DNA of 64,000 bases from Cephalotus follicularis. Taxonomy: Eukaryota > Streptophyta > Magnoliopsida > Oxalidales > Cephalotaceae. The position numbers and the translations under genes are program-made. Shown here piece after piece: positions 11,208 through 59,196 of this stretch (positions are counted from its first letter, which is position 1; each line of letters begins with the position of its first letter). The notes beneath the pieces are model-generated. The model was not told the origin of the DNA. It searched no databases and saw nothing but the letters and a program-made list of their open reading frames with translations. The stretch lies in contig BDDD01001578.1 in assembly GCA_001972305.1 (NCBI GenBank), positions 1-64,000 of the forward strand. The letters run 5' to 3'.

Positions 11208-11649
11208 TGTAATACCCCATGTCTCTTCAAGGTGGATCGTCTCTGCTTGAGTGAGGACTCCGTCTCTTTTGTTGGAGACACCACAGTTGTGGAGATGTAT
11301 CTACAAGTTGTTTTGTGAGCTATATAGGTATGGCCCTTCTTATTCACTCTAGATTGTTTGAAGATTCTTCGACTCTTATTGTTCTGTGTCCTTCTGGAAG
11401 TTTCATTACTAGTGCGCCTCCGTGGTGGTTGGCACGATCTTGGTGCTAAAGTCAGGGGATGAGTAGCTCATGGAATTTCAGACATAATCCTAGCAGGTGA
11501 TGAGGTTGGGCCTGCTTGGTTGAACTGCGCGGCTTCAAAGCATACTTGCATTTTGTTGCATAGCTCATGAGGTGCCCTTGCTGTGGGGTCAAATTTGAGT
11601 TGCGCTGACTAATGCATCAGCTTCATATTGTGATGCTCTGTGTAAATTG

Positions 11650-11860
11650 TTGAGGAGCAAACCCGGTCTTTGTAGAGTAGAGCAGGGTAGAGCAGAGCAG
11701 ACTAGAGCAGAGTAGACCAGGCCAAGGCATAAGTAGACCGAAGTAGAGCAGACCTGGTCTAGGTTGAGTAGAATCGGACGAACAGACCTGGTTGAGCAGA
11801 CTAAGTTGAGCAGACCTGGTTGGGCAGACTAGAACAAGTAGAGCTGGTTGAGTAGAACTG
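11650..11860. repeat. AGCAGACC-word array in B1 LTR
   Basis: Repeated words GAGCAGACC, GAGTAGACC and GAGCAGACTAG occur, including the palindromic AGACCTGGTCT near 11750. Spacings are about 10, 15, 20 or 21 bp, less regular than the CAGTCGACTG arrays. B2 has the reverse-complement word GTCTGCTC at 45251-45472. Confidence 0.75.
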
Positions 11861-15225: not shown

Positions 15226-15690
15226 CAGTCGGCCGTTCCCCATGGCAGTCGACTGTTTCCTTTAAACAGTCGGCTGTCCCCGATTTGGCGGTCAGCTGCC
15301 ACCCTTAGCAGTCGGCTGTCTCATGCTTGACAGTCGGCTGCTCGTATAACAGTCGGCTGTCCCCTTGAGACAGTCGCCTGTTTCGTAACAATACGTGTCT
15401 TCTACATCGCCACTCACCCCAGCATTGCCATCTCAGCGAATCCGGGTGAAGTGACACGTGGACTGTCGACTGTCATTCAAAACAGTCGGTTGTGCCATCC
15501 ATCAGTCGGCTGTCTTCTATTGGCAGTCGGCTAATCATACAGCGGAGGTGTCCTCCATTAAAACGCATGAACAGTCGACTGGCTCTATTGCACAGTCAGC
15601 TGTTCTCCCTCGAGTAGTCAGCTGTTCTCACTGAACAGTCGACTAATAGCCTCGAACAGTCGGCTGTCCTCGTTGGACAGTCGGCTGGTC
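15226..15690. repeat. CAGTCGGCTG word array in family C LTR
   Basis: The first eight words start at 15226, 15246, 15267, 15289, 15309, 15331, 15350 and 15371, spaced 19-22 bp. After a gap, a second run lies at about 15470-15690. Forms are CAGTCGGCTG, CAGTCGACTG, and decayed cagtcagctg and agtcgcctg. Confidence 0.9.
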
Positions 15691-22417: not shown

Positions 22418-22422
22418 ACTAT

Positions 22423-23773: not shown

Positions 23774-24020
23774 GAGCTCGTACAGCGGAAAGAAGAGCTT
23801 AGAACGTTAAGGCAGAGCTCGGACAGTTATATGCAGAGCTCCGAATGCCAGAGCAGACCCCGAGGTAGAGACCAGAGGAAGAGATCAGAGCTCAAGGTTC
23901 AAAGTCAGACCTCGATGCAAAAGGCAGATCTCAAGGGTATAGGTTAGACCTTAGTACAAACAAGCTAAAGTAGAGCTCTGGAAGTTAAGGCAGAGCTCTG
24001 GAAACTAAGGCAAACCTCGG
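23774..24020. repeat. GAGCTC-word array on a 20-bp ladder
   Basis: GAGCTC or close variants (gagctt, gacctc, gatctc, aacctc) start at 23774, 23795, 23815, 23836, 23888, 23908, 23928, 23947, 23973, 23993 and 24013. Steps are mostly 19-21 bp. The word differs from that of other families but the step is the same. Confidence 0.8.
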
Positions 24021-24340: not shown

Positions 24341-24627
24341 TTCAACTTATTTTTTGCCAATTTTCTCCTTAGTAGAAATAGTGTCTTGTCCAATGTATTT
24401 TTTGCCAATTTTCTTCTCAGTTTTTACTTTACTTTTTTCTTTTCCCTTTTTTGTTGGGGGGGTCGGGGCAAAGTCTTCATCATCGTCGAGATTGATAGAG
24501 GCCATGGTAGGAGTTACAAATGCTTACGACTCATGGTCATCATCATCGGTTGTATTTGCCAATGCTTCTTGTAATTTTTTAATTTGTGCCTGGAGCTCTT
24601 GCTTAGTAGAAGTAGAGGCAATACTAC

Positions 24628-25634: not shown

Positions 25635-25960
25635 AATCTGCAAAATGTATAAAATGTTTCAGAATACAATTATTCCTCAAGAATATTTTCATGCACACAC
25701 AAATAAAATTAATGTTTTCGCATGCAAGAATTTTTCAAGCGCACACAGTCATTCATGATGCTAAATGTTTATTCTTTTGTGAATCAAATTTCTTTTTCTA
25801 GCTCAGTTGGAGATAGAAATTTTCTCTTGCTCTATCTCAGTGCGAGATAGAGATTTTCTCTATTTTCCTTCAATTTCAGTGGGAAATAGAGACTGGTAAT
25901 GAATCTGAATTTTGTCAAATAGTGAGACACGCAATCCTGTTATTATATACAAAAGAATAA

Positions 25961-35017: not shown

Positions 35018-35036
35018 TCCACCCCCCCTAAAAAGA
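35018..35036 (-). other. Polypurine tract of the chromovirus
   Basis: Element strand ctttttagggggggtgga next to the 3' LTR. The conserved 'gatttcaggacgaaatc' block lies just upstream, as in other plant chromoviruses. Confidence 0.8.
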
Positions 35037-35071
35037 AGATTTCGTCCTGAAATCAAAAACATAAACATACT

Positions 35072-36439
35072 TCAAACAAACAAGTGCGGATAACGTTCCC
35101 GAATATGCTCCTCAAGCTCCCAAGCAGCTTCACGTTCGGGATGATTCCTCCACAGCACTTTCACAAAAGAAACGGTCTTGCTGCGTGTCACCTGTTTTTG
35201 TCGATCCAGAATAGCCTCGGCCACCTCGTCACAAGACAAATCCTCACGAATGCTGTCCAACGGATAGTGAACCACATGCAGGGGATGATACTGATAACCC
35301 CTCAGCAAAGATACGTGGAACACATTATGGACATGTGCTAACTGCGGAGGCAAAGCCAACCGATAAGCTACCGCGCCTATCCTTTCCAGAACTTCGAAAG
35401 GTCCGATAAAACGTGGACTCAACTTTCCTTTTAGCCCAAAGCGTCGGACTCCCTTCCAAGGCGAAACTTTCAAAAACACATGTTCACCGACCTTGAATTC
35501 CAAATTCCTCCGATGTCTGTCTGCATAACTCTTCTGTCGAGATTGAGCTGATTTCAATCTCTCCCATGATATTATCACTTTCTCCGTAGTGATCTGCACT
35601 AGCTCGGGTCCTTCGATAACTCGCTCTCCAACCTCATCCCAACATGTCAGAGCACGACATTTCCTCCCATATAGAACTTCAAACGGAGACATACCGATAC
35701 TAGCATGCCAACTGTTATTGTAGGCAAACTCCCCCAAACTCAAATACTCATCCCAGCTCCCAGTCCACTCTAAAGCACAAGACCTCAACATATCTTCTAA
35801 GGTCTGGATGGTTCTCTCAGTCTGCCCATCTGTCTGTGGATGAAAAGCTGTACTGTAACTGAGCCTAGTACCCCAAGCTTTCTGAAACCCTTTCCAAAAC
35901 CGCGATGTGAAACGAGGATCCTTATCCGAAACAATGGATACCGGAGTCCCATGCAGTCTCACTATCTCCCGCTGAAACACCTCAGCCAAACGATCAACAT
36001 AAAACTCTTCTCGGATAGCCAAGAAGTGAGCCGATTTCCTCAATCGATCCACTACTACCCAGATAGCATCATTTCTTCTGAAAGTTCTCGGCAAACCCGT
36101 AACAAAGTCCATCGATATGCTTTCCCATTTCCAAACCGGAACTTCCAAGGGTTGTAACAAACCACTAGCACGCTGGTGTTCAATCTTTACCTGCTGACAG
36201 ATCAAACACTTCCCAACGTACTCCGCTACATCCTTTTTGATTCCGTTCCACCAGAAATTCTTCTTCAAGTCCTTATACATTTTTGTAGAACCCGGATGTA
36301 TAGAAAATGGAGAACTGTGTGCGTCCGACAAAACAGCATCTCTGATAGAAGAATATGACGAAACACACAACCGATTACCCAGCCATATCACACAATGTTC
36401 ATCCACACGGAACTCTGATTGCTTACCTTTTTCAACATT
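35072..36439 (-). pseudogene. Integrase and chromodomain part of gag-pol
   Basis: The open stretch after the fourth nonsense codon (TAG at 36440-36442) holds the complete integrase. The HHCC finger shows 'HSSPFSIHPGSTKMYKDLKK' and 'CLICQQVKIEHQ'. The DDE core shows D in 'SMDFVTGLP', D in 'VSDKDPRF' and E in 'TDGQTERTIQTLE'. A C-terminal domain (GPFEVLERIG, FHVSLLRGY) and a chromodomain (AILDRQ...VKVLWRNHPEREAAWELEEHIRERYPHLF) follow. In relatives the chromodomain steers insertion to heterochromatin. No key residue is missing in this stretch. Confidence 0.92.
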
Positions 36440-38506
36440 CTAGACTAAGGCCCAAAGCTCACCATCGTCACTCTGAGCTGTCTTAATCCGAGATACAAGA
36501 GTAGGCTCAATATTTATCGTAGCAATACAACCATCAGAACCCCGAACATACATATGTAAATCCATCCGCTCCATATCAGCTATCAATTGCGGCTGAGTAA
36601 GCAAAGCCGCTACACTCCCAGAACTCTTCCGACTTAGAGCATCAGCTACCACATTTGCTTTACCAGGTTGGTACTGAATGTTCAAATCATAGTCTTTCAG
36701 AAGTTCTAACCACCTTCTTTGACGCATGTTCAACTCTTTTTGTGTAAAGATATACTTGGGACTCTTATGATCGGTAAAGATGTCACAAGTTTCTCCGTAC
36801 AAGTAGTGCCTCCAAATCTTCAATGCAAACACTACCACTGCCAACTCATGATCATGTGTAGGATAGTTCACTTCGTAAGGTTTCAACTGTCTCGAAGCAT
36901 AAGCTATCACATGACCGTGTTGCATCAGAACACAACCCAAACCTTTCTTAGAAGCATCGCTGTAAATCTGGTATCCACCTGACCCAGATGGTAAACGAAG
37001 AATTGGTGCTGACACAAGACCATTCTTCAATTTCTTGAAGCTTGCTTCTCGCTCCTCATTCCACTCAAACTTCGCTCCTTTCTTCATAAGCTGAGTAAGT
37101 GGTAAGGCTATAGAGGAAAAGCCTTGCACAAACCGCCTATAATACCCAGCCAAACCCAAGAAGCTCCTAACCTCCGTCACGGTGGTAGGTCTCGGCCATT
37201 TAATAATAGCCTCAACTTTAGCAGGATCCATACAGGTACATTCAGCTGTAACCACATGACCCAAAAACGCCACCTGTTCCAACCAGAACTCACACTTCAA
37301 GAACTTCGCGTGTAACTGATTCTTCCTCAGAATCCCCAACACAATGCGAAGCTGTTCTTCATGCTCTTCCTTAAACTTGGAATACACAAGAATGTCATCT
37401 ACGAACACAATAACAAACTGATCCAAGTACTCATGAAAAACCCTGTTCATCAAGTCCATGAAAACTGCCGGTGCATTAGTGAGTCCGAAAGGCATCACCA
37501 AAAACTCATAATGCCCATACCGAGTACAGAAAGCAAATTTAGGCACATCTTCATCCTTTATTCGAAGCTGATGATATCCCGATCTCAAATCGATCTTCGA
37601 GAAATATTGAGTACCCTAGAGTTGATCAAACAAGTCATCAATCCTAGGTAGCGGGTATTTATTCCGAACAGTGATTCGGTTCAACTCTCTATAGTCTATG
37701 CATAGCCTCATAGACCCATATTTCTTCTTAACAAAAAGAACCGGAGCACCCCACGGTGAAACACTAGGCCGAATGAAACCTCGATCCAACAGTTCGTGTA
37801 ACTGTTCCTTCAACTCTTGCAGTTCCAACGGTGCCATTCTGTATGGTGCCTTAGATATAGGTGCCGCTCCGGGAATGAGTTCGATGGTAAACTCCACTTC
37901 CCGTTGCGGTGGAAAACCCGGTAACTCCTCTGGAAACACATCAGAAAATTCTCGCACCACAGGATAGTGTTCAAGGCGAGGCTCAACCTTTGAGACATCC
38001 TTCACAACAGCTAAGAAACCTTCAGCGCCCTTAGCTACCAACTTCCGAGCTTTCAAAGCGGATATAACTTTCACTTCCTTCCTCGACTGTGAACCCTGAT
38101 AAACAAACTCAGGACTATTCACTTCCCCAAACAAAACTCTTCGAGCATGGCAATCAATCGTAGCCCGATGATGCTCCAACAAGTTCATTCCCAAAATCAT
38201 ATCGAAGTTGTACATATCGATAGGCAAAAGATCCGCATCACGAACCCGATCATCAAAAACAAGAGGACAACTATAAAAGCACTCAGATATCACGACAGAA
38301 GAACCCGTAGGGGTTGAAAGAACCAAAGCTGGATCAAGCAACTGAGAAAACATCCCAAGATGCCGAACAAAAGACCTCGCTACAACCGAGTGGGTCGATC
38401 CAGTATCAGACAAAACATAAGCCCTACGGTTACCAACATAAATAAAGCCCGAAACAGTACCTGGTGCGTTAGCTGCCTGCTGAGTCGTGATAGCAAAGAC
38501 ACGACC
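36440..38506 (-). pseudogene. Protease, RT and RNase H part of gag-pol
   Basis: Domains in order are the retropepsin site 'SDTGSTHS' (D at 38405-38407) and RT motifs '[20 protein letters not shown]' and 'LCIDYRELN'. Then come '[17 protein letters not shown]' and the active site FVDD (37394-37405), followed by RNase H '[18 protein letters not shown]' and '[11 protein letters not shown]'. Stops are TAG at 37616-37618 (within 'FDQL*GTQ', usually Gln) and TAG at 36440-36442 (within 'WALV*NVEK'). Both are CAG-to-TAG type changes. Frame is the same as gag. Confidence 0.92.
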
Positions 38507-39613
38507 TCAAACGTTGCGCTGTCCATGATCTGCATTATTCCCCTTCCTTTCCTTCACACGAGGGTCAGGACAATCCTTCATGAAGTGCCCTTTCTGTCCA
38601 CACACAAAACAGGCTCCACTAGCCTTGTAACACACTCCCACCGGATGTTGTCTACCACACACATCACACTTTGAAATCTGGACATCCGCAGATCCCTGAG
38701 TCTGCCTCTGGTCATTACCGAGATATTGCTGTCCCCGGTTATCATTTCTCCTCCCACGCTTGCCATTCCTATTCTTATTATGTCCAGAACCTTGCCCCTG
38801 AGAATCACCTCTGTTTCTCTTTCTGTCAAACTCCTGTCGATCAGCCTGGAAATCTAACCTTTCCAGTTCAATGTTCTTAGCCGCATTAGCCACTTCAGAT
38901 ACATCAGCAAACCTAGTATTGATCAACTTACCCCAGAGCTGATAATGCAACTTCCACTTGAACTTTTCTGCCTGCTCCAATGTTGTCCCTGCCGCGGACC
39001 TAGCAAAACAAGCAAGCCTAGTGAAACGGGTCAAGAACTCTGGCACCGAATCTCCATCCTTTTGTCTGGTATTGATAAACTCTCTGGCGTAAGCCTCCTT
39101 ATCAGCGGTGGGAAAGTACTGCTGATAAAAGACCTCGCAAAACTCAGACCAGGTCAAAGTCTCCGTATAGTTGCCACCCTTAGCCAAAACCACAACTTTC
39201 CACCATTTCTGAGCATCACCCTCAACTTTGTACACGGCTAACTTAATCTTCTGTTCGTCACTGTAACCAAGCACATCAAAGATCTTGTCCATATTAGCAA
39301 TCCAGTGCTCAGCTTCCACCGGAGTCACGGCTGAGCTGAAAGACTGCGGTCTCTGCTTCTGGAACCGCTCTAGCCAAACATAAGTGGGCGTATCAGTCCT
39401 GTCCCCAGCATCTCTTTCCAACTGGACATCAGCTGGAGTATCATTAGCAGCAACCGGCTCTCTAAGGCCCTGATTCTAATTCTGTTCACTCAACACGCGT
39501 CGTAACTCCTGAGCGACTGCCTGACGTACAAGCTCCTCCATAGTAGGCTCATTTCTAGCTCCCTGAGCCTCAACGGGTGCAGTTCTCCGAGAAGCGTTCC
39601 TTGTACGTGCCAT
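38507..39613 (-). pseudogene. Gag part of gag-pol
   Basis: The true start is the ATG at 39611-39613 ('MARTRNASRRTAPVEAQ'), in frame with everything downstream. A TAG at 39476-39478 and a TGA at 38507-38509 interrupt it. The capsid-like retrotransposon gag region covers about 39350-38850 ('AEHWIANMDKIFDVLGYSDE', 'WWKVVV', 'FINTRQKDGDSVPEFLTRF'). A basic stretch and one CCHC knuckle ('CFVCGQKGHFMKDC', about 38575-38616) follow. The TGA replaces what is commonly an Arg codon (CGA). Confidence 0.88.
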
Positions 39614-39767
39614 CTACGAAAAGGCGCTCAATCATAAAACATCACATGGAACAAAACAGAAAGCAGAAAACATATTAGAAAATCATAAGCGAAACAGCCT
39701 AACCCGGTGTCTACCCAGTCTCATAGGTCAAACCAAGTTAGGTCTTCTAAGGAAACAAAACCTAAAT

Positions 39768-39777
39768 CTCTGATACC
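39768..39777 (-). other. Primer-binding site of the chromovirus
   Basis: Plus strand ctctgatacc, so GGTATCAGAG on the element strand, the core of the initiator-Met tRNA complement, six bases from the 5' LTR edge. Confidence 0.8.
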
Positions 39778-39783
39778 TAAATC

Positions 39784-42526
39784 TGTAACACCCCCGGACG
39801 GCGGGAGTTGTCACAGGGTCATATCATACATAACATATCTTAACAAATCATAAGATTACTTTATTAGCCAAAAGCAGCCAAAAACGTGGCAGTCTTATCA
39901 AAACAATAATACTTAACCATTTATCATATTAAGTAGTTGCAGAAAATTCAAAACATAAATCAGTTCAAATTTAAAACATAAAACATAAAACATAATAATC
40001 CATTTTTCAGACCACTAAACATAACATAAGGATCACTCTCCTAAAGGATCCAACATCTAGGGTGGTCATCACTCAATCACACTTTCCCCCGCTGCTCCTG
40101 AAAACCTGCCGTATTGAAACAAAAACGCAGCTGAGCAAACCTCAGTACGGATAAGGGAAAATAAAACAGTAAGCGGTAATTTAAAAAAACAGTAATATTT
40201 CAATAAACTTCGTAACAGAAATCTTAAACAGTTACAACAGTTTAATCATATTCAAATGAAAATTGCATATTTTTCGAAACAATTACGGAACAATTCAAAA
40301 CGTTATAAATCGTAGTTTGTAAAACATACTGAGCCATATACATATGACATATCGTAAATTTTGGAAAGGGAGACGCTAATTCCACATGCCCACTAGAATT
40401 GAAGTGTACGGCACTACAGAAGTCAATTCTCACATACACATATCCGATCACACCTCATACCATATATCTGAATTCACTTCAGATCACATAAACTAGAATC
40501 GATTCATACGCCTCTGTCATACATTGCTGATCCACAAATCCACCTCATGGGAATTGTTCATTCACTCAGAGACGCCGTAGTCTAATCACACCGATACGGA
40601 AGTGTCACGTCCCCGTGCCAGGCCCACGACGTGCCTATGGTACGCCCCATAGGTGGGTACAATACTCAGTATTTGTCTTTAATATAATTGATTTATCAAA
40701 ATCAACTTAAAATCACTTGACATATGTTTTCTCTCAACATATTCAGAAACCGTTCACAATGGTATCATAACATATCGCATTATAACATATCATGTCTTAA
40801 CATATTGTGTCATTTCATATCACATGAATAAAGTCGAAATCATTTAAATATCGAACCAACTTTAAATTTGAAACATGTCAAAGTCATAAAACATTCTCAA
40901 TTTCATAAACGAAGATGCTTAGCAAAACAGTTTCAGTTCGAATATCAGATAGCCAAGGAACATAAAATCCGTACCTTATGCGCTTACAAAGTACTTACGA
41001 AGAGGCGATCAAAACAAATTCTCCTTTGAAGCGCACAATCTAAAAGTCATTGAAAATCATATGTGCAAGAGTCTAAAACACATCAGAAGTATTAAACAGA
41101 CTCTTAACTGTGTTTGGAAAAGAATCGGATCGATACGGGGATCAAACGAATTAAAACAGTTGAAAATAGTACATTTCAGGGCAAACCAGTCGACTAAAAC
41201 AGGGATCCAGTCGACTAGGTATGCTTGGCAGTTGACTATTCATATGGTCCAATTTACTACACAACCCAAAATGTAGGCAGTCGACTACACAACCCAGGGC
41301 AGTCGACTGCATTCATGTGGCAGTCGGCTACCCAACCATTCCGGCCGACTGTCCAAAAAGACAGCCGACTGTTCTGGGTGACAGAACAGTTGGAAATTCG
41401 ACGATTTGCTACTGAAAATGGTTCAAATGGTTTCTACGTTAAACTAGATACATATGGACACAAACATATGATTATATACGACTTGTAGGTGACACAGAAA
41501 CACAGAAACGACATATAAACAATTGGATAGTGATTTAACTTTCAAAAGGAAACAAAAAGACAATGGATGTACATGTCCAAATTCTGTCTCTAATCGATTA
41601 CAGATGTTATAAAACAAGTTTGTGACACATATATTAGTATAAAACGTGTTTACAATATCACTAACACAATGACAACATGTTTAGGCAGGAATCAATGGTC
41701 CAAAGACACTAAGAGCACAAAACTCAATTACAACAAAACTATCATTAAAGGAACGAATTTACTGACCTGTAGTGATTCCTAGAACACAAAAAAAATAGTA
41801 GGAGGAACACAAACACAAACATACAATCTGCTGTGACAAAATAGAGACCAAAAGAAACCAAAATAAAGAGAAGTTTAGCAAACCCAATGAATTCAACTTG
41901 AAGAACAATTAAGGATCGAATTTACCTCTTCAATTTTGAAGAATGAATCACACAGCAGTTTGTTACACACAAACAAGATAGAATCTGCAGTGGATTGCAA
42001 GAAGGATGAAGGCAACATTTAAAATGGTAAAGGTACTCTAAGAAAGGAGAAAGGAGGAGACATGATTTGACAAAAGGGGAAAGAAAGGAGGATTTTCTGG
42101 AATTTGAAATGGGAAAAGAAGGACTTAGCATGTGAATTTTGATGGGGGAAAGAAAGATTTGCTGGAAAGAAGGAGAAAGATGGGAGGAAAGTAGGAGAAA
42201 ATGATAAAATAGGAAAAAGGAAAATAAAGAATTAGTAATAAAAAGAATTAATAATAAAAAGAATTAATAATAAAAGAATTAATGGATTTTAAAATAAAAG
42301 GTAAATAAATTGTTTTTAATAAACAATTTTGAATTATTATAAAATAAATAAAACCCAAACCCAACATAGCATAACATACCCAAATTTTGGACTGGTATCA
42401 GTCAGCTCAATTCACATAAACACGATCATAGGGCAACCAAACTTTTAAAATTAAACAAAATTAAAAGCCCGAAAACACATATAAAATCCGAAAAAAAAAA
42501 TATTTACGAACGGGCAGGGTATTACA
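39784..42526 (-). repeat. 5' LTR of the 32292-42526 chromovirus
   Basis: Partner of 32292-35017. Its word array (about 41188-41380) lacks one 22-bp unit and has several decayed words (gttgac, aatttac, ggccgac) that are intact in the other LTR. An extra 'agaattaataataaaa' repeat near 42230-42280 accounts for most of the length difference. Confidence 0.9.
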
Positions 42527-42790
42527 ATAACGACCCCCACGTAATATGAATTATCTGTGAACCACAATTTACAGGTACAAGCACGTATAGTCCCTCCATT
42601 GACAATGCTCTGATTAAATCTAGGATACAGATTATGTCAGACCCTAATAACTTAATCTTTAGCTACGTGATTATCTTTCGTCAGCCTTATATATTATTAG
42701 AGGTACCCCTCTAATATTTTACCAATGATATCATTCACTTGATACAGCGGCTAGCCTGGACAAGCACTAATTCGCTAACGAAAATCATCC

Positions 42791-44132
42791 TGAACATAAT
42801 CTTTTTTTACTAGAATCAATGGATTCATTATTGCACGTTCACATGTCTCCATACATAAGCGTACTATGTCCAACTAATGCCTGTATACATTTCATTGAAT
42901 ATGTATTTAAGCACTATCAAAACACAGTACCCAATGCTCAAGACATCCAGTGACGACTCATGTCCAAGGACCACTTGCACTGCTGTAAAACTAGAATTAT
43001 GTCTGACAAGTAAGTAAAACTACATACATATATTCTGTTTTACAGTCACCTTCAATGAACTCATTAATTAATCAACGAGCACCCACGTAATTTGCATAGC
43101 ATTTACCATGCGAGTGAGTGTGAGATCAGTCGCCCTCTACTTACCGATCTGACAGTACGTGCTAGTTTATCTAGATTGATCATGCCCTGAGTGTCAATCC
43201 TATAATCAGGAAGAATCGAAATAAAGTATACCGAGATTCTAACTCTCATATCATGATCTAATCATGAACTTGGTTCTCTAACTTTATTATAGGACATTCA
43301 TTTATCATTAAATAAACATGTATTAATGTAATGAACTCATAGCCAATGATAAAATATGAACATCTCTATTGAATATAAATCGTTATATACAAGATAGAGT
43401 AAGTGCAAGCTTGGCACTGGCTTGCAGGACTTTATCTCTAACACATACGTACACCTCACCCTGAACATAATCTTTTTTTACTGGAATCAATGGATTCATT
43501 ATTGCACGTTCACATGTCTCGATACATAAGCGTACTATGTCCAGCTAATGCCTGTATATATTTCATTGAATATGTATTTAAGCACTATCAAAACACAGTA
43601 CCCTATGCTCAAGACATCCAGTGATGACTCATGTCCAAGGACCACTTGCACTGCTGTAAAACTAGAAGTATGTCTGACAAGTAAGTAAAACTACATATAG
43701 ATATTCTATTTTACAGTCACCTTCAATGAACTCATTAATTAATCAACGAGCACCCACGTAATTTTCATAGCATTTACCGTGCAAGTGAGTGTGAGATCAG
43801 TCGCCCTCTACTTACCGATCTGACAGTACATGCTACTTTATCCGGATTGATCATGCCCTGAGTGTCAATCCTATAACAAGGAAGATTTGAAATAAAGTAT
43901 ACCGAGATTTTAACTCTCATATCATGATCTGAGCATGAACTTGGTTCTCTAACTTTATTACAGGACATTCATTTATCATTAAATAAACATGTATTAATGT
44001 AATGAACTCATAGGCAATGATAAAATATAAACATATCTATTGAATATAAATCGTTATATACAAGATAGAGTCAGTGCAAGCTTGGCACTGGTTTGCAGGA
44101 CTTTATCTCTAATACATGCGTACACCTCACCC
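42791..44132. repeat. 671-bp tandem duplication over the Copia-2 LTR end
   Basis: 42791-43461 and 43462-44132 are direct copies (both start tgaacataatcttttttta and run to tacacctcaccct) with few differences. The unit contains the LTR terminus TCTCTAACA plus about 18 bp beyond it, so the duplication arose after insertion. Confidence 0.85.
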
Positions 44133-45551
44133 TCGACTGAAATCACATATGACATATAATAGGGTACCATCATCAGAGTACAAGTTCAATACCATAGTCA
44201 CAATGATATATAAACAGGAAGGTGACCTAGTCACTCAGAGCCCAGGATTTATATGCTCGTAAATAATATCACAATCAAGAAACCTACTCATGCTCAACAA
44301 AAGACATACCGGACTCAAGTCCCGAGAGAATCATCATATAAGACAACTACAACCGGGCACATATCAAACATGAGTCTCAAAATAATAAAGAATTTGAAGG
44401 AATGTCTTACTCACATATTTGCTGATAGCAATTTCCGCGGACTAAACCTTGAACGCTCCAGATCAGCTATTGGGTCCACGTCTACAAAGCCATCACATAA
44501 CAGGTTCAATAAGCATATTTCCTATGCTTATGTGAGAATATAGTGGGTAAATAATCCATACAAATGCTATATTCCCATATTACCCTTTTATGCCAGAAAA
44601 CCTTACTATAACTTAATATTCAATGTTTTACACTTTCTAATATCTCTACCATTACTAATTACTGTTCAAATCCATCACTATATCATAGATTTCTTTAGTG
44701 AACTTCAATATCCCATTATTTCTCGCAATGCCATTATCCTTCTAACCTTAGGAGAACTTAATGGCTTTAAATCCTTAATATAAATATAAACTTCTATAGC
44801 CAAAAAGTTAGGAAACTTACAATATTACGTTAGAAGGGTGAAAGATGAGTCACTTCCACACTTATATCTCTTAAGAGGTTCTTGGAGAAACGAAGATGAT
44901 AATGAGGGCTCGCACGAGATAATTGTTTCGGCCAAGCAGAGAAATGAAAATATCCTTCATTTCCTTTTTATAACCCTTATACTTAATTAGTAATGAATAA
45001 TCTAGGAACCTCCAGATAATTAGGGACAAATCTAGATAATTCAGGACTTATGTAGATAATTGGGCCAATTCTATGGGCCTTACCAAATCTTTGGGCCTTA
45101 AGCCTACTTAGTTTTTTATTATGCATAACTTTACCGCTAGTTATGCAAAAACACTACAAAGCAGCCCTACTATCCCACTTGCTTCCTAGCCGACTTCCAG
45201 GTCTGTTTGGCAGAGTACCCCACAGACGAAATTGACGTCAAAGCAGAGTGGTCTGCTCTGATACAACTATCGCAGGTCTGCTCTGTACTATTCAGCAAGT
45301 CTGCTCCGCTTATATGAAGTCTGCTCGACATATCCCAAGTCTACTCATAGGTATTCTCAACCAAGTCTACCCAACCTAGAGCAGGTCTGCTCTTCATGGA
45401 CCACGTCTGCTCTTCCTAGACTAGGTCTGCTCCACTTTAGCCTGGTCTGCTCTGCTCCGCCCTAGTCTGGTCTGACCCGAAAAATATGAATTTTTTATAA
45501 TAGCATGCAAACGTAATAATTATACTCTAGATAATGATACGGGGTATTACA
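44133..45551 (-). repeat. B2 LTR, right part
   Basis: On the element strand it starts TGTAATACCCCGTATC, followed by a word array and a TATA-like ttataaaaagg near 44960-44975. A transcribed-looking leader follows. No coding domain is seen; the 96-codon ORF at 44253 has no support. Confidence 0.65.
45251..45472. repeat. GTCTGCTC-word array, 20-bp ladder
   Basis: Words start at 45251, 45276, 45299, 45319, 45339, 45365, 45385, 45405, 45425, 45445 and 45465. Six of ten steps are exactly 20 bp in a row or close to it (385 to 465 all 20). Words read gtctgctc, gtctactc or gtctaccc. Confidence 0.88.
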
Positions 45552-46370
45552 CCAGACATTTAAAATTTCATGATTCATTAATAGGAGCCATTGAAACAAG
45601 TTTATGCAATGGACCTGTCTACTTTGATGGGTATCTAGATGAAATAATTTCTTTAACAGATAAAAATATTTCAGAAACCTTAAAAATTAACATTAAGCTC
45701 CATGGTTACAACATGTTACTTGGATTTGAAATCATTTCTATTATTCATCCGTTCATTATAAAGGTACTAATTCAATTTGCCCCAAATCCCTAGTAAATTT
45801 AACAAAATGATAAACAACTATAATGAGATGTGCACCAAATTATTCAAATATTTTAATTTTTCAAAAAATTAAGTGGTGTGATATTAATATCCCAGAGGAT
45901 TGATCCTTACAATCCGATACTCTCATTCTCAGTCATGAAAATATTGAAAATACTTCTTTACACTCAATTACACAAACTGAAGATGACTTAGTAAAAATTA
46001 AATTTGATAAAACTGTTAAAACTAATTCCCCTTTGACTTCAGAAAATTTAAGAGAAAAATTTAATTATGTAAATATTTGTGATGAACAATTAGATAAAAA
46101 TTATCAATATCGTCCACATAGATCATCCACTTCTAGTGTAAGATCTGGACAATCAAACTATTTTGACACTAAAAGTAGATTATCTGAAATTTTGAACCAG
46201 TCAAATATTTCAAAAGGAATTTATGAAACTGAAAAACCTATTTCTCCAATATACTCTAAGATGAAACCTCCATCTCAGTTTATGATTATTAGAATTGATA
46301 GACCATTTGAAACTAATAAAGATTTAATAAGAAAAAAAAAATTTGCACAAAAAGAATATACAAAATAGGA
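45552..46370 (+). pseudogene. EPRV ORF1: movement protein, continued
   Basis: This picks up the frame broken at 27406. It shows the movement-protein blocks 'FHDSLIGAIETSLCNGPVYF' and 'SLTDKNISETLKINIKLHGY'. Frameshifts and stops follow from about 45760, then an open stretch (46033-46368) rich in Ser/Asn that corresponds to the C-terminal tail. AT-rich throughout. The coat-protein region expected next is absent. Confidence 0.8.
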
Positions 46371-47185
46371 ATAATTTCTTTACAAAATATACAAAAACGA
46401 AAACTTCAACCAAATTTATTAATTTAATAGAATGAATAATGTACCAAAAAATGACATATTAATATTACAATTGTAATTCAAAACTCTTTAAAGTTACAAT
46501 CAATGGCCCTGGTCGATTCATGAGCACAAATATATTGTATCAAAAAAGAATTAATCCCCACGAAATTCTTCAAAACAAAACTAAAGAACGATTAACAACG
46601 GCAAATGGCGAAAATCTTAGGGTTCAATTCAACATTTCAGATGCCCACATTTGCAATGATGGCATATGCATTAAACAAATATTTATTTTAGTAAAAGTTC
46701 TAGACATAGGTATAATTTTAGGACAGTCATTTTTAGAAGTTATTAAACCATTTAAAGTAAAAAGTGAAGGAATTACTACAAAAATATTTCAAAGAAAAAT
46801 TCTATTTGCATTTACTGAGAAACCAATTAGGACAGATATTAATATATTAAAAGCAGTATCGATATTCAAAGAATATTCAATAAATCAAATAAAAAAAGAA
46901 CATCATTTACATTGTATGAAACAAGAAATGTCAATTTATAAACCTGAACAATAGTTACAAACTTTACCAGTACAAGAAAAAATTAAATCATTAAAAAATA
47001 ATATAATTAATAATCATTGTTCAGACCTTCCCAATGCTTTCTGGCATAGGAAGCGTCATATGGTATCCTTACCATATGAAAAAAAAATTCTCTTAACAAA
47101 ATATTCCTACTAAAACAAGACTAATTCAAATGACTCGTGAACTAATGGAACATTGTAAAAAAGAAATTGGAGAACTACGTCATAT
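46371..47185 (+). pseudogene. EPRV protease and start of RT
   Basis: The region near 46506 reads 'ALVDS' then a stop where the catalytic D-[ST]-G would continue, so the Gly codon has become TGA. The 46520-46954 frame gives the rest of the protease ('HICNDGICIKQIFILVKVLD', 'GIILGQSFLEVIKPF'). The stretch 46990-47180, with shifts in A-runs, contains 'DLPNAFWHRKRHMVSLPYEK', the linker before caulimovirid RT. The palm motifs are not reached. Confidence 0.78.
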
Positions 47186-50993: not shown

Positions 50994-52266
50994 TGTAGGA
51001 AGTCTAGAGGGGGGGTGAATAGACTTATAAAAAATTTACTAGCAATTATACCACAAAATAATCCAATTAACACAAACACACAATTGCAGAAAGTAAATAG
51101 TGTAGGGTTTAGAGAATTTGCAAACGGATATATAGTGGTTCGACAAACCACCTACATCCACTCCCCAAGTCCTCCCCTTGAGTATTTCACTAGGTATGCC
51201 CCAATCCGGGCTTGAAACTCCAACCGAGATCCAACAACTTTCGCTCCAACCAAGCGAATTACAACTTTGCTCAAACCGAGCAATACAAGAGACAACCTCT
51301 CTTGTATGAGTGAAATAAGTGTTTAATGAGTTACAAATTCGTAATGAATTTGTTTACAATGAAACTCAAATTCTAACAAAGCTTATAGTGTGTATGGAAT
51401 GTAAAATGTAAGGCTTTGTAATGTGTAGGATTGCTTTGGATTGATCTCTTTTAATTGTTTGAAAGCTTGGTATTGTACTTGAGATAGCTTGGAAGAATAT
51501 GCAACTTGAATGGTTGATACCTTGTACAGGAGCTCTAATTTTCCTCTTATAGTTGAGCCTCCAACGGATCTATTTTTAACTGTCTGTTACAAATCCAGTC
51601 GGCTGGATTTGGACGGCAGTCAGCTGGATTGATGGCACGTGCATTTGAATATAGCCGTTGGGGTTGGGCAATCGGCTGGATCCTGTAGGCAGTCGACTGG
51701 TATGCTTGGCAGTCGACTGGTTGCTTTGTTCCAGTCGGCTGTTGAGGAAAAATTGGAGATTACAAATGCTACTGCCTGAAATTGCACAATTGAAAACAGT
51801 CGGCTGGATTCTCTGGCAGTCGAATGGACCCCATGGCAGTCGACTGGTGCCCTGCTTCCGTCGGCTGGATTGGGTGTTGAAATGTTACAGAAGCTACTGC
51901 CTGATTTTGTACCCGTGGCAGTCGACTGATGCCCTGTGGCAGTCGACAGGATTTGCCTGGCAGTCGACTGGACCCTTGTGGCAGTCGACTGGATTGGTGT
52001 TCCTGTAGATTCTGAGTTTGGTTGAAGAAACAGTCGACTACATCCTCTGGGAGTCGACTACTTAACCTAGGGCAGTCGACTGGATTTCTCACCAGTCGAC
52101 TGGATTTGCCTGTATCTGCATAAAAGTTCTTGGCACAACTTTGGACATAAAATCAAGTGAGTGTATGAAGTTATAACTTAAAGAATTATGCATACAAGTA
52201 ATCTACGTTTGTTAATCATCAAAATAACATATGTAATGCAATTAATCGGGGTGGCAAAGGCCAACA
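50994..52266 (-). repeat. Sirevirus 3' LTR (1,273 bp)
   Basis: From TGTAGGAAG to GGCCAACA on the plus strand. More than a third is a CAGTCGACTG word array (51596-52102). It matches the 5' LTR closely apart from two 20-bp unit differences. Confidence 0.9.
51596..52102. repeat. CAGTCGACTG word array, 18-19 units
   Basis: Word starts are 51596, 51617, 51669, 51690, 51710, 51732, 51797, 51817, 51837, 51858, 51919, 51940, 51961, 51982, 52031, 52051, 52073 and 52093. Within runs every step is 20-22 bp. Words are flanked by Ctgg/ccag, extending the dyad in several units. Confidence 0.95.
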
Positions 52267-52610
52267 ATCTCCCCCTTTTTGATGATTGACAAAACATGCA
52301 TATTTTGCATAAATCTTCACAAATTTTACCCAATTTAGTTCCAAAGTCCAACTTTACCAATATCGGCATATCCAATGCATTTGTCATAACAAAGTGCACT
52401 TGCTCAATGCAAGATTACAACCTATCTCATTACTATGCAATGTTGTCCCCCAAATGCAACTTCAATTTTGCAAACTTTCAATTATAATGCAATATGCAAT
52501 GTTGCAACATGTATTTCTCTCCCCCTTTTTGTCAAACACCAAAAAAAGACATGGAAGCTCCCCCTCAATCTTAGCATGGATTGAAGAGCTCCCCCTCAAC
52601 TTATGCATTC
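52267..52610 (-). other. Polypurine tract and repeated PPT-like runs
   Basis: Next to the 3' LTR the element strand reads AAAAAGGGGGAGAT (52267-52280). A second AAAAAGGGGGAGAGA run lies at about 52508-52522. Two TTGAGGGGGAGCT copies lie near 52558 and 52590. Reiterated PPTs upstream of the 3' LTR are a described Sirevirus trait. Confidence 0.75.
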
Positions 52611-52907
52611 ATACTCATATTCATCAATAAGATTAAATGCAATGAAGTACACATTTATATAAATGCCATTAATCCAACACAAAGCAATAAACATTAAAAC
52701 ACTTTGGCATTCAACACATAAGTCCTCAACTTTATAAACCACATTCATGTAACTCAAGTCATTAAAAATCAAAGCATTTTAACATTAAATACTTAAAGCT
52801 TGAAGTACATAACCCACATTGTCTTATACATAACCAAGGAAAAATAAAGACAATTACACAAGCAAAGTTTCAAAATACAATGAAAACATGATAATGCGAA
52901 TGTAAGC

Positions 52908-54068
52908 TCAAGAGGGAGGAGGATGCTGAGGGAAAGCATTTTGAAACATCTCAATGATGTTTGCTTGTCCTCGAAGAAGATCGGCTTGACTTTGAAGAAT
53001 GTTTGCTTGTCCCTCATGAAACTGATGCATTTCCCCTTTGATAAACTCGATGTCGGCCTGGGCAAGATCCATTCTTGCCTGAAGAGACTCCAAGGTAGGC
53101 CTGCTGCTGCTGCTGCTACTCGGGCCAACACTCGGACACATCTCAAACTGTTGAGGATCGTCCTCCTCATCATCATCATCATCATCCCCAGCCCTAACAT
53201 CCGCTTGTTCTCTTACTTGCTCTCTACCTCTTCCTTGCATCTTGACCCACTCATCATCCTCCAAAACAATGTTGCAATGTCTAAGCCCCGCCTTATTCAC
53301 CAATTGCTTATGGGAAGGTTTAATACTTTGCTCATCCTCAGGAATATCTATGTTAAATGAAGCAAGGACAGTCGAAATGATCCTACTGAGAAGCATAGGA
53401 TATGGAGTGTGATTTGGTCGAGATAAAATGTGGTTGACAATGAAGTAAGGAAGGTTTATTAAGGTTTCGTTCTTAACACAAGCGACGAATTTAAGGTCGC
53501 GCTCGGAGGGGTGGGTGTGTGATCCTTCTTTTGGAAGAAAAGTGTTGGTAACAAGAAGTAGAATGATCCTAGAGGCAATTGGCAAATGACTACTAGTCAC
53601 ATTCATAAGTGGATTGACATTAGGTTGTTCTAGACAAATTCCTAGGGCCTCCGTTTTGCCGATGTCATGAAAGTTAGTAATTGCCTCATTAGGAATTCCT
53701 AATATTTCGGCAACTAAGTCGGGAGTAATTGAAATGGGAGTGCCTAAAACAAATGAATTGGCAATGCAAGTGGTGGAGGATGCTAAATTGGCATAAAACA
53801 TTTTCACTAGCCTAGGGTATATGATGTGAGATGAGCAAATATAATCAAACCAACCCATAGTCTCTAACCACGTCATTACAATCGCAAGATTGCTAATGAG
53901 AATATCCCTAGATAACCACTTCTCCAAATGTAGTTTAACTGAGCTGAAATGAGAATTATACCTATTTTCTTTCTCCTTGGAGAGAAAGAGGTCATTGTTG
54001 AAGTCAAGTTCCACTTGTGAGCCCCTAGGTAGCCTTGAAGTAGTTGCTCTTGCTCTCTTTGGTCCCAT
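52908..54068 (-). CDS. Extra ORF of Sirevirus-type element, 386 codons, intact
   Basis: ATG at 54066-54068 to TGA at 52908-52910, with no interruption although the rest of the element is damaged. The N-terminus is basic ('MGPKRARATTSRLPRG'). A globular part of about 230 residues contains 'YPRLVKMFYANLASST' and 'GTPISITPDLVAEILGIPNEA'. This resembles the 'putative plant transposon protein' domain (Pfam Transposase_32) by eye. An acidic run (eight Asp/Glu-rich residues near 300), a Ser run, and a C-terminal helix with repeats of 'ADxxxGQANI' that may form a coiled coil follow. No signal peptide or membrane segment is seen, so it is not a typical env. It lies downstream of RNase H in the sense direction. 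Function is unknown. Confidence 0.75.
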   Translation of the reverse strand: MGPKRARATTSRLPRGSQVELDFNNDLFLSKEKENRYNSHFSSVKLHLEKWLSRDILISNLAIVMTWLETMGWFDYICSSHIIYPRLVKMFYANLASSTTCIANSFVLGTPISITPDLVAEILGIPNEAITNFHDIGKTEALGICLEQPNVNPLMNVTSSHLPIASRIILLLVTNTFLPKEGSHTHPSERDLKFVACVKNETLINLPYFIVNHILSRPNHTPYPMLLSRIISTVLASFNIDIPEDEQSIKPSHKQLVNKAGLRHCNIVLEDDEWVKMQGRGREQVREQADVRAGDDDDDDEEDDPQQFEMCPSVGPSSSSSSRPTLESLQARMDLAQADIEFIKGEMHQFHEGQANILQSQADLLRGQANIIEMFQNAFPQHPPPS

Positions 54069-54179
54069 ATTGAAGATTGCAGGTCGGATTTTGAGAGAGA
54101 AATGTGTTTGGGAGGTTTTTGATTTGAGAGAGAATGAAAATCAGTAGGGATTTCGGGTTTAAAACCCTGACTATCGTGA

Positions 54180-54262
54180 TTCCAGTCGACTGGCCACTAA
54201 TGGCAGTCGACTGGATGGCAAGGTAGTCAACTGGACTATTTGACCAGTCGGCTGTTTTCTGC
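54180..54262. repeat. CAGTCGACTG words upstream of the extra ORF
   Basis: Four words (cagtcgactg, cagtcgactg, agtcaactg, cagtcggctg) about 20-23 bp apart lie in the intergenic stretch between RNase H and the extra ORF, outside any LTR. Confidence 0.85.
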
Positions 54263-54469
54263 AGAATGAGAAATGCAGAAATTTTGCCTATCCAATTGAA
54301 ATGCAAACCTTTGGTATACTATTATGGACTAATAGCAACCTAGGTAAATGAGCTAATATGTGTCATTGAGTTACAAGCTCAATGTATAAATGCATGATGA
54401 TCTTTGAAAACATTTTCCACTCAATTCAATCAAAAATCAAATAAGTATCACAATTACACATAAAATGAG

Positions 54470-56233: not shown

Positions 56234-56238
56234 TATAC

Positions 56239-57123
56239 CTACATCATCAACAACATCTCCCTTTCTCGGAGCACTATTAGACTCTTCAAATAAAACATGA
56301 ATTCACTACGTATGCTAACAATAGATAGACTCTTTTCATTTTGAATTCGTCTACCAAAATTAACAAAGGAATCTAAGGCATCACTCTTCAAAGCTAAGAA
56401 AGTAACCCAAGTAAACCTAGAATAATCATCAACAATAACTAAACCATATTGTTTACCACCAAGACTTAAAGTTCTAGTTGGTCCAAACAAATCAATGTGT
56501 AGTAATTGTAAAGTACGAGTAGTAGAAACAACATTTTTGGCTTTAAACGATGTTCTTGTTTGTTTGCCTTGTGCACAAGCATCACACAATTTATCATTTT
56601 CAAACTTCATTTTTGGCAAACCAATAACTAAATCTTTTCTAGAAAGTTTGGCAAGGACATCCATGCTAGCATGGCCTAACCTTCTATGCCAAAGCCATTT
56701 GTCATTAGTATTTGCATTAAAACAAACATCTTTTGAAAACATTTCTTTTAAATAAACCACATACACATTGCCTTGTCTATGACCAACAAAATTTACAATA
56801 TTGGTGCTAGAATCAATAATGTGACAAAGTGAAGACTCAAAATTAATTTTACATCGTTTATCACATAATTGACTCACACTAAGCAAATTATGCTTAAGGC
56901 CTACAACATAAGACACATTTTCAATTAAGGTAGAGAAATTGTTACCAATTGAACCAATGCCACAAATTTTTGCCTTGTTGTTATCTCCAAAGGTGACCTT
57001 TCCTCCATCAATTTCTTTAAGATCGATGAATAGGCTTTTGTCACCCGTCATGTGCTTTGAGCACCCGCTATCCACATACCACGGTTGCTCCTCTTTGTGA
57101 TTTGCCCGTAAGCATTGTTCCAC
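56239..57123 (-). pseudogene. Copia protease and integrase 5' half
   Basis: The protease site is 'WYVDSGCSKHMTG'. The GAG-pre-integrase block 'KWLWHRRLGHASMDVLAKL' gives the HH pair and 'CDACAQGKQ' the CC pair. The core starts 'LHIDLFGPTRTLSLGGKQYG' with the first Asp, and 'VIVDDYSRFTW' follows. After 'SIVSIRSEF' the normal second Asp motif and the rest of the integrase are absent, and near 56295 the sequence joins the 'ESNSAPRKG' linker before RT in another frame. The DDE triad is thus incomplete. Confidence 0.88.
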
Positions 57124-57976: not shown

Positions 57977-57984
57977 CTTGCTTC

Positions 57985-59196
57985 GTGAATAGACTTATAA
58001 AAAATTTACTAGCAATTATACCACAAAATAATCCAATTAACACAAACACACAATTGCGGAAAGTAAAGAGTGTCGGGTTTAGAGAATTTGCAAACGGATA
58101 TATAGTGGTTCGGCAAACCGCCTACGTCCAGTCCCCAAGGCCTCCCCTTGAGTATTTAACTAGGTATGCCCCAATCCGGCTTTGAAACTCCAACCGAGCT
58201 CCAACAACTTACGCTCCAACCAAGCGAATTACAACTTTCCTCAAACCGAGCAATACAAGAGACAACCTCTCTTGTATGAGTGAAATAAGTGTTTAATGAG
58301 TTACAAATTCGTAATGAATTTGTTTACAATGAAGCTCAAATTCTAACAAAGCTTATAGTGTGTATGGAATGTAAAATGTAAAGCTTTGTAATGTGTAGGA
58401 TTGCTTTGGATTGATCTTTTTTTATTGTTTGAAAGCTTGGTATTGTACTTGAGATAGCTTGGAAGAATATGCAACTTGAATGCTTGATACCTTGTGCAGG
58501 AGCTCTAATTTTCCTCTTATAGTTGAGCCTCCAACGGATCTATTTTTAACTGTCTGTTACAAATCTAGTCGGTTGGATTTGGATGGTAGTCAGCTGGATT
58601 GATGGCGCGTACATTTGAATATAGCCGTTGGGGTTGGGCAGTCGGCTGGATCCTGTAGGCAGTCGACTGGTTGCTCTGTTCCAGTCAGCTGTTGAGGCAA
58701 AATTGGAGATTACAAATGCTACTGCCTGAAATTGCACAATTCAAAATAGTCGGCTGGATTCCCTGGCAGTCGACTGGTGCCCTGCTTTAGTCGGCTGGAT
58801 TGGGTGTTGAAATGTTACAGAAGCTACTGCCTGATTTTGTACCCATGGCAGTCAACTAATGCCCTGTGGCAGTTGACTGGATTTGTCTGGCAGTCGACTG
58901 GACCCCTGTGCCAGTCGATTGGATTGGTGTTCCTGCAGATTCTGAGTTTGGTTGAAGAAACAGTCGACTACATCCTCTGGGAGTCGACTACTTAACCTTG
59001 GGCAGTCGACTAGATTTCTCACCAGTCGACTGGATTTGCCTGTATCTGCATAAAAGTTCTTGGCACAACTTTGGACATAAAATCAAGTGAGTATATGAAG
59101 TTATAACTTAAAGAATTATGCATACAAGTAATCTACATTTGTTAATCATCAAAATAACATATGTAATGCAATTAATCAGGGTGGCAAAGGCCAACA
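57985..59196 (-). repeat. Sirevirus 5' LTR, inner edge lost
   Basis: Aligns with 50994-52266 from its 22nd base onward. The word array (about 58563-59035) lacks two 20-bp units present in the partner and has more decayed words. Confidence 0.9.

What the first reader, a model, noticed from the sequence alone, without database searches (positions are those of the whole stretch)
45251..45472. Different word (GTCTGCTC), same 20-bp ladder, in family B2
Eleven copies of GTCTGCTC-like words occur at steps 25,23,20,20,26,20,20,20,20,20. The word is unrelated to CAGTCGACTG but the spacing is the same. This separates the phase from the sequence: LTR families appear to keep a two-turn ladder while changing the word, as expected if a host binding or silencing factor and the element co-evolve.
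Basis: partly seen in the sequence, partly recalled or inferred. Interest (0 to 1): 0.9.

Follow-up and report, generated by a model that had tools for sequence, protein, structure and literature searches.

The report
Repeated promoter motif in plant LTR
A cut-down plant retrotransposon end carries a row of eleven similar 8-letter words upstream of a promoter-like site; the row is real and recurs in sister copies, but it looks like a family-specific repeated control motif of a known sort that grows and shrinks by whole units, rather than a rule that DNA must be marked every two helix turns.

Summary
In detail: eleven GTCTGCTC-like words lie at 45251-45472 with exactly the steps stated, far beyond chance. 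They lie in a truncated LTR read on the minus strand (44119-45551), 80-301 bp from its start and about 277 bp before a TATA-like box, so probably in U3. In 39 sister copies fetched from the same 1.58-Gb assembly, 202 of 370 steps are exactly 20 bp and none is 21-22. Words are more conserved between copies than spacers or flanks. The array is a diverged 20-bp tandem repeat.

The two-turn interpretation fails in part. A sister LTR family keeps the word but mixes 14-bp steps (27 of 75 are 14, 28 or 42) with 20-bp ones (17). Helical phase of this array is not significant. A random 60-kb sample shows no 19-22 bp peak. In the window, 15 of 19 such ladders share one word, CAGTCGACTG. Closest known: repeated motifs (RM) in Sirevirus LTRs (PMC2829016). 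New here: RM-like arrays in Ty3/gypsy LTRs, one with a non-palindromic word. A binding factor is inferred.

The parts
45251..45472 (+). The ladder: 11 GTCTGCTC-like words read on +; on the LTR strand (-) the word is GAGCAGAC. A diverged 20-bp tandem repeat
44119..45551 (-). 5' 1.4 kb of an LTR of a Ty3/gypsy-type element; the rest of the LTR is missing. The LTR begins TGTAATACCCCG at 45551 on the - strand
   Evidence: 73-78% identity in three pieces to LTR positions 1-98, 97-772 and 950-1348 of the 3.17-kb LTR of C6023; start also seen in sister copies
44965..44972 (-). TATA-box-like TATAAAAA (in TTATAAAAAGG), about 578 bp inside the LTR, downstream of the ladder
   Evidence: TATA-like box at 566 in the C6023 LTR
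11672..11857 (-). Same word in a sister LTR family, steps 14,14,14,14 and then 20 and multiples of 5; LTR strand is +
11208..11219 (+). Start (TGTAATACCCCA) of the sister-family LTR that holds the 11672-11857 array; the array begins about 447 bp inside it
   Evidence: position calculated from L091
33689..33895 (.). CAGTCGACTG-type ladder (10 words) in the 3' LTR of a Ty3/gypsy element 32291-42524
41187..41371 (.). The same ladder (8 words) in the 5' LTR of that element; the pair differs by one 22-bp unit in the ladder
51596..52102 (.). CAGTCGACTG-type ladder in the 3' LTR (51015-52266) of a Ty1/copia element, - strand
58639..59032 (.). The same ladder in the 5' LTR (57985-59196); the pair differs by two gaps, both exactly 20 bp and both in the ladder
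54183..54254 (.). Four more CAGTCGACTG-type words between pol and the ORF 52908-54140 of the copia element
15226..15687 (.). Long CAGTCGGCTG-type ladder (16 words in two clusters), element not identified
23791..23953 (.). Third word class (GCAGAGCTC / CAGACCTC), two chains of four at 19-22 bp, element not identified

Best explanation
The ladder is a repeated cis-element array in the promoter-side (U3) part of an LTR of a Ty3/gypsy family in a large plant genome. Shown: it sits between the LTR start and a TATA-like box, recurs near the LTR start in sister copies, is a diverged 20-bp tandem repeat, and its word is better conserved than its spacers. Differing unit numbers between sister copies are shown for this family; exact unit-length gaps between the two LTRs of one element are shown for two neighbouring families. 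Inferred: unit slippage or template switching during replication or reverse transcription makes the array and sets its step (the unit length). The word is then kept because a host DNA-binding protein (activator, or part of silencing or anti-silencing) reads it, and number and clustering of sites matter more than helical face. The 45251 copy itself is a truncated remnant and probably does nothing now.
For: Sister copies: 60 matches in the assembly, 40 candidates scored of 411. Place: LTR start found in 28 of 40 copies, array beginning 57-100 bp inside it; TATA-like box downstream at 566 in the C6023 LTR and by a strict pattern in 5 of 40 copies; polypurine tract just before the LTR start in two copies. 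Tandem origin: spacers of seven 20-bp units are 0.42 identical pairwise against 0.25 in shuffles, words 0.93. Step: 202 of 370 steps are exactly 20, 25 are 40, none 21 or 22. Unit turnover: clusters of 5 to 15 words in 39 copies; copia LTR pair differs by two 20-bp gaps only, gypsy pair by one 22-bp unit in its ladder. Constraint: over 39 copies, pairwise identity is 0.822 at 88 word columns, 0.748 at 126 spacer columns and 0.767 at 349 flank columns (word over spacer p 0.0009, word over flank p 0.0016; spacer against flank p 0.32). Dyad: AGACCTGGTCT occurs 58 times in 40 arrays; perfect 11-mer dyads of all kinds are about 7-fold over one shuffle of each array.
Against: No expression, methylation, small-RNA or binding data were available. 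The strict TATA pattern was missing in 35 of 40 copies. Perfect 10-mer and 12-mer dyads are not enriched. A third LTR pair in the window (18290-18958 and 21748-22417) has no unit gap, only one 1-bp gap. The C6023 LTR pair could not be compared over the array because its 5' LTR lacks that part. Copies are related, so the p-values overstate the case. Word-anchored alignment could inflate word conservation, although spacers are no worse than flanks. The most variable word position (5, 0.648) belongs to a CTG/CAG site, so mutation bias may also act. Only 40 of 411 candidates were scored, best first.
Confidence: 0.62

Rival explanations
1. Neutral minisatellite: a 20-bp unit amplified by slippage inside a fast-evolving LTR, with no function; the word stands out only because it is the least decayed part of the unit.
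For: Spacers carry residual unit similarity; whole-unit gaps between two LTR pairs; step differs between sister families; short tandem arrays in retrotransposons are known as sources of satellites (PMC7004042, passages).
Against: Word columns are better conserved than spacers and flanks between copies; array position relative to the LTR start is stable in the 28 of 40 copies with a start; 1-2 bp indels are rarer in the array (9 in 215 steps, about 0.002 per bp) than in flanks (116 in 14,786 bp in three regions, 0.006 to 0.011 per bp).
Confidence: 0.25
2. One reading: a host or element factor needs sites on one helix face, so LTR families hold a two-turn (about 21 bp) ladder and change only the word.
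For: CAGTCGACTG-like words (up to 2 mismatches) have 71 of 99 neighbour distances up to 80 bp at 20-22 bp, mode 21; 19 chains at 19-22 bp against 1-9 in other step ranges; three word classes show chains in that range; phase coherence p 0.001 and 0.023 in the two LTRs of one gypsy element and 0.04 in the 15-kb array; sister family retains some 20-bp steps (17 of 75).
Against: 14-bp steps with the same word in seven of seven sister-family copies looked at, of 39 scored besides the window copy, and 13-14/27-29 bp in a random locus; the 45251 family is exactly 20 bp with recurrent 25-26 bp breaks and the 45251 array has phase p 0.10; the copia array p 0.21; 15 of 19 ladders are one word; no 19-22 peak in the random sample.
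Confidence: 0.08
3. The array is a decayed coding repeat.
For: The same word triple in the viral collection is at steps of 9, 18 or 21, multiples of 3, in 22 of 23 stretches, as expected of coding repeats (inference).
Against: The step here is 20 with 23, 25 and 26; the longest + strand open stretch overlapping the array is 67 aa; the array recurs near the LTR start.
Confidence: 0.02

Closest known systems
Repeated motifs (RM) of Sirevirus (Ty1/copia) LTRs, PMC2829016 (section 9 and passages seen)
   Same: Element-specific short motif in many copies (8 to 32 per element, 3 to 14 in the 3' LTR), mostly in the first half of the LTR and upstream of a TATA box, different words in different elements. 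The Vitis Sirevirus RM CGGTCGACCG is close to CAGTCGACTG, and in that paper further RM copies lie upstream of the ENV gene, as the words at 54183-54254 lie between pol and the next ORF of the copia element here.
   Different: Described there as Sirevirus-specific and palindromic, mostly with a CGG-CCG core and CpG islands, starting 200-400 bp inside the LTR. Here such arrays are also in Ty3/gypsy LTRs; the GTCTGCTC word is not palindromic, has no CpG, and its array starts 57-100 bp inside the LTR.
VANDAL motif arrays bound by VANC anti-silencing proteins, Arabidopsis (PMC5735166, PMC10398659; passages)
   Same: Short motif in same-direction tandem arrays in non-coding DNA of a mobile element, changing by repeat gain and loss, with different motifs in VANDAL21 and VANDAL6.
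   Different: VANDALs are DNA transposons (recalled) that encode the binding protein; no such protein was sought for the LTR families here.
Tnt1 U3 with BII boxes (PMC3316501, PMC1838419; passages)
   Same: U3 sequence that varies between subfamilies and holds boxes known to bind defence-induced factors.
   Different: Ty1/copia (recalled); the passages seen give no 20-bp ladder.
Del-lineage Ty3/gypsy LTRs with a length-variable 5' region (PMC4029996, passages)
   Different: That variable part is a CpG island and is absent from the groups that hold the eudicot elements; the array here is CpG-poor (observed/expected 0.38). Lineage not tested by a tree here.

Membership tests
Sirevirus RM cluster | Eight or more copies of one motif per element (3 to 14 in the 3' LTR) | tested here: met
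   11 words; 5-15 per cluster in 39 sister copies
Sirevirus RM cluster | Cluster in the first half of the LTR, upstream of a TATA box | tested here: met
   80-301 bp from LTR start, TATA-like box at about 578; nearer the start than the 200-400 bp given in the paper. Strict TATA pattern found in only 5 of 40 copies
Sirevirus RM cluster | Motif palindromic | tested here: not met
   GTCTGCTC is not palindromic; part of the units holds an overlapping 11-bp dyad
Sirevirus RM cluster | CGG-CCG core, CpG island | tested here: not met
   No CpG in the word; CpG observed/expected 0.38 over 45251-45472
Sirevirus RM cluster | Host element is Ty1/copia Sirevirus | tested here: not met
   The internal part of the C6023 sister element encodes RVP_2, as does the window's Ty3/gypsy element; the Ty3/gypsy-type reverse transcriptase start after it was recognised by eye. 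No RT tree was made
Sirevirus RM cluster (copia element 51015-59196) | Ty1/copia RT, palindromic motif in many copies, LTR cluster before a TATA box | tested here: met
   RVT_2; motif and clusters; TATA-like at 1092/1132 of the LTR, after the cluster
Sirevirus RM cluster (copia element 51015-59196) | Extra motif copies upstream of an ENV gene | tested here: inconclusive
   Four words at 54183-54254 before the ORF 52908-54140; that ORF matches PF20167, a plant transposon protein, and is not shown to be ENV
Sirevirus RM cluster (copia element 51015-59196) | CGG-CCG core and CpG island | tested here: not met
   Core is CAG-CTG; CpG observed/expected 0.46 and 0.66 over the two LTR arrays, window 0.61
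Sirevirus RM cluster (copia element 51015-59196) | Multiple PPT copies, integrase signal and other Sirevirus motifs | not tested
   not looked for
VANDAL/VANC target array | Array in a VANDAL element that encodes VANC | tested here: not met
   Array is in an LTR; no VANC search was made
Two-turn (about 21 bp) phased ladder | Step and helical phase kept within the family | tested here: not met
   20 bp exactly, and a mix of 14 and 20 bp in the sister family; phase p 0.10
Del/Tekay lineage of Ty3/gypsy | Placement by reverse transcriptase tree | not tested
   Only LTR termini and a protease hit were compared

The most novel reading that the evidence does not exclude
In this plant, unrelated LTR retrotransposons (at least one Ty1/copia and one or more Ty3/gypsy families) have come to carry the same kind of dense, spaced motif array in their LTRs, with the palindrome CAGTCGACTG shared across the copia/gypsy divide and other words in other families. 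This would mean a common host DNA-binding system (activator or silencer) that many element families must address or evade, with site spacing itself under selection.
Probability: 0.2. Interest if true: 0.72.

Novelty: new variant of a known kind. Interest (0 to 1): 0.42.

Why it matters
Repeated motifs of this kind were described as specific to Sireviruses. Finding RM-like arrays in Ty3/gypsy LTRs, with one palindrome shared between a copia and a gypsy family and a sister family that changed step but kept the word, makes the question of who reads these motifs testable by family comparison.

Tried and rejected
Two-turn phase: tested by step spectra and phase coherence, not upheld for this array. 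Coding repeat: rejected by steps that are not multiples of 3. Descent of the 20-bp unit from an AGTCGACTAGG site: 26 of 40 arrays have AGTCGACT within 1 mismatch in the 110 bp around the TATA-side end (5 exact), against 28 of 995 background windows; in 3 of the 26 the only hit is a GAGTAGAC variant of the ladder word itself. A local alignment of the unit with that site was no better than shuffles (p 0.13), so descent is left open. The same test against gypsy, copia and 15-kb units gave p 0.58, 0.71 and 0.31. Spacer sharing between CAGTCGACTG ladders: 10 of 21 pairs of ladders reached p below 0.05 on 300 shuffles, uncorrected; suggestive only. A first version of the word-conservation test chose word columns by matching and was partly circular; one search replaced it. 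A common place before a TATA box for all ladders: not upheld; in the gypsy element 32291-42524 the ladder (LTR positions 1123-1341) lies after the only TATA-like match (1015 and 1048), and the pair 18290-18958/21748-22417 has no TATA match. Viral contigs as an outside control: 23 stretches for the GTCTGCTC triple, steps 9, 18, 21 or 22, none 20; 0 for the AGTCGACTG triple. Literature: searches. A search for six short words of the ladders gave 832 papers, of which 15 were listed; all 15 look like chance matches from other fields, and the rest were not seen. I therefore make no claim that these words are unpublished. Genome-wide counts of the AGTCGACTG triple and of copies of the 23770-24030 array could not be obtained.

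Full report
What is there. The eleven words and their steps are exactly as described. They are not chance: 11 words within one mismatch in the LTR fragment 44119-45551, against a mean of 0.37 and a maximum of 5 in 1000 simulations. A scan for any 8-base word chained at least four times at 19-22 bp gives 19 chains in the window and none in ten simulated windows. Each of the 17 other step ranges tried gives 1 to 9 chains. 15 of the 19 chains belong to one word class, CAGTCGACTG and its variants; the other four are a TA-rich run, two chains of a GCAGAGCTC/CAGACCTC class at 23.8-24.0 kb, and the GTCTGCTC array.

Where it lies. The window is repeat-rich DNA from an assembly of 1.577 Gb; that it is a plant is inferred from its element types (PF20167, caulimovirid pieces). 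The ladder is inside an LTR read on the minus strand. Its start, TGTAATACCCCG, is at 45551. Sister copies have the same kind of start, and two have a polypurine tract just before it, which fixes the orientation. In the C6023 element the LTR is about 3.17 kb, with a TATA-like box (CTTATAAAAGGG) at 566. The 5' LTR of that element ends before TATCAGAGC, which looks like a tRNA primer site (recalled), but lacks the array part. The internal part encodes a retroviral aspartyl protease (RVP_2). The 45251 copy matches that LTR in three pieces, positions 1-98, 97-772 and 950-1348 (window 45551-44119, 73-78% identity). Beyond that lies a 678-bp tandem duplication (42785-44133). So this copy is a truncated remnant. 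Its ladder is 80-301 bp from the LTR start and its TATA-like box is at about 578, so the ladder is probably in U3. Right of 45551 is other DNA with a movement protein fragment (PF01107).

The family. The 300-bp query finds 60 matches, with 40 of 411 candidates scored. I fetched the 39 places other than the window's own. Of 370 steps between neighbouring words, 202 are exactly 20, 25 are 40, 26 are 25, 12 are 26, 8 are 19, one is 18, and none is 21 or 22; 24 are 5 and 37 are 12, 14 or 15. The array begins 57-100 bp inside the LTR in the 28 of 40 copies whose start was found. A strict TATA pattern was found downstream in 5 of the 40. Cluster sizes range from 5 to 15 words. The aligned copies show a unit GAGCAGACCTGGTCTAGGAA on the LTR strand, with a second spacer type near the TATA end. 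In the window copy the spacers of seven 20-bp units are 0.42 identical to each other, against 0.25 for shuffled spacers. So this is a tandem repeat whose spacers have drifted more than its word.

How it changes. The two LTRs of one element start identical (established knowledge). The copia pair (95.9% identical) differs by only two gaps, both exactly 20 bp and both in the ladder. The gypsy pair (96.5%) has one gap in its ladder, a 22-bp unit, and eight gaps elsewhere. A third pair (18290-18958 and 21748-22417) has a single 1-bp gap and no unit change. Whole-unit gain and loss is thus seen in two of three pairs, and by itself keeps the step constant. Small indels are rarer in the GTCTGCTC array (9 off-by-one-or-two steps in 215, about 0.002 per bp) than in the flanks of the same copies (58 in 8,418, 14 in 2,358 and 44 in 4,010 bp). 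This comparison favours the array, because an indel inside a word removes that word from the count, and copies are related. It hints at spacing constraint but does not prove it.

Is the word constrained? With word columns taken from the window copy, and that copy left out of the score, pairwise identity over 39 copies is 0.822 (88 word columns), 0.748 (126 spacer columns) and 0.767 (349 flank columns), counting columns with at least 15 copies; word over spacer p 0.0009, word over flank p 0.0016, spacer against flank p 0.32. The least conserved word position, 5 (0.648), is in the CTG/CAG site, a CHG methylation context (inference). This fits a protein-binding word that decays by methylation after insertion. 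It is correlational.

Against a two-turn rule. The sister array at 11672-11857 has the same word, in an LTR that begins at about 11208. In seven further copies of that family (of 39 scored), 27 of 75 steps are 14, 28 or 42 bp, 17 are 20, one is 40 and 20 are 5, 10 or 15. So that family mixes 14-bp and 20-bp steps. One random locus carries the word at 13-14, 17 and 27-29 bp. Phase coherence at 10.5 bp for the 45251 array is 0.45 (p 0.10). It is better for the CAGTCGACTG gypsy arrays (p 0.001 and 0.023) and the 15-kb array (p 0.04), and not significant in the copia array (p 0.21). For CAGTCGACTG-like words, 127 occur in the window against 14.5 expected, with steps 20 (19), 21 (43) and 22 (9) among 99 distances up to 80 bp, and minor classes at 27-28 (5) and 48-49 (5). 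So a step near two turns is a property of that word class, while GTCTGCTC families use 20, or 14 and 20. In 60,000 random bases (6,335 of them N) there are 2 chains at 19-22 bp and no peak. That sample is small, comes from 15 large contigs that each contain a copy of the array, and cannot exclude other ladder families.

What it works like. Bousios and colleagues (PMC2829016; section 9 and passages seen; first author recalled) described repeated motifs in Sirevirus LTRs: 8 to 32 copies per element, palindromic, element-specific, mostly in the first half of the LTR and upstream of a TATA box, with extra copies upstream of the ENV gene. Their Vitis motif is CGGTCGACCG. The copia element at 51015-59196 here fits much of that description, with four CAGTCGACTG-type words at 54183-54254 between pol and the ORF 52908-54140; that ORF is not shown to be ENV, and the arrays are not CpG-rich. 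The paper calls the motif Sirevirus-specific. Here the same palindrome type sits in both LTRs of a Ty3/gypsy element (32291-42524), though there it lies in mid-LTR after the only TATA-like match, and the GTCTGCTC array sits before a TATA-like box in another Ty3/gypsy family. The GTCTGCTC word itself is not palindromic and lacks CpG, though part of its units holds the dyad AGACCTGGTCT (58 perfect copies in 40 arrays; perfect 11-mer dyads about 7-fold over shuffles, 10- and 12-mers not enriched). It therefore works like an RM cluster but does not meet the stated definition. A later study of maize Sirevirus palindromes was seen only through passages and a reference in PMC5311732, which calls the palindrome motifs small-RNA hotspots; the paper itself is not held. 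VANDAL arrays bound by VANC proteins (PMC5735166, PMC10398659; passages) are a well-studied case of motif arrays in mobile elements that change by repeat gain and loss and differ between families.

Verdict. The most likely reading is a repeated control-site array in the promoter side of the LTR that evolves largely by whole-unit gain and loss, with the word under some constraint. The step is the unit length and is not shared as a two-turn rule. Function is inferred; no binding, expression or methylation data were available.

Noticed in passing
45476-45790 +, 45904-46365 +, 46463-46951 +: Fragment with a viral movement protein match (PF01107, E 1.2e-7) directly beside the LTR, followed by two open frames without Pfam matches; may be a decayed caulimovirid-type insertion.
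   Followed up: partly
4409-4933 +: Open frame with a caulimovirus coat protein domain (PF22909, E 9.1e-14).
   Followed up: no
8281-9996 and 24104-25853: Inverted copies, about 91% identical in two pieces; the one open frame tested there (8758-9672) has no Pfam match.
   Followed up: no
42785-43462 and 43456-44133: Tandem duplication of 678 bp, 95% identical, where the LTR homology of the ladder copy ends.
   Followed up: partly
22418-23060 and 13149-13218: Another array, about 28-bp unit (CCTGTGTGGCT...TCTGATGATA), with a piece in the second place as well.
   Followed up: no
23770-24030: Third word class (GCAGAGCTC / CAGACCTC) at about 20-21 bp; its element could not be identified because the genome search did not complete.
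   Followed up: partly
LTR copies of the ladder family, just downstream of the array: A site like AGTCGACTAGG stands at the TATA-side end of the array in many copies (AGTCGACT within 1 mismatch in 26 of 40, 3 of these only variants of the ladder word), often as AGTTGACT or AGTCAACT, as expected from decay of a methylated CG.
   Followed up: partly
L078 2150-2338: Random locus with the GAGCAGAC word at 13-14, 17 and 27-29 bp steps.
   Followed up: partly
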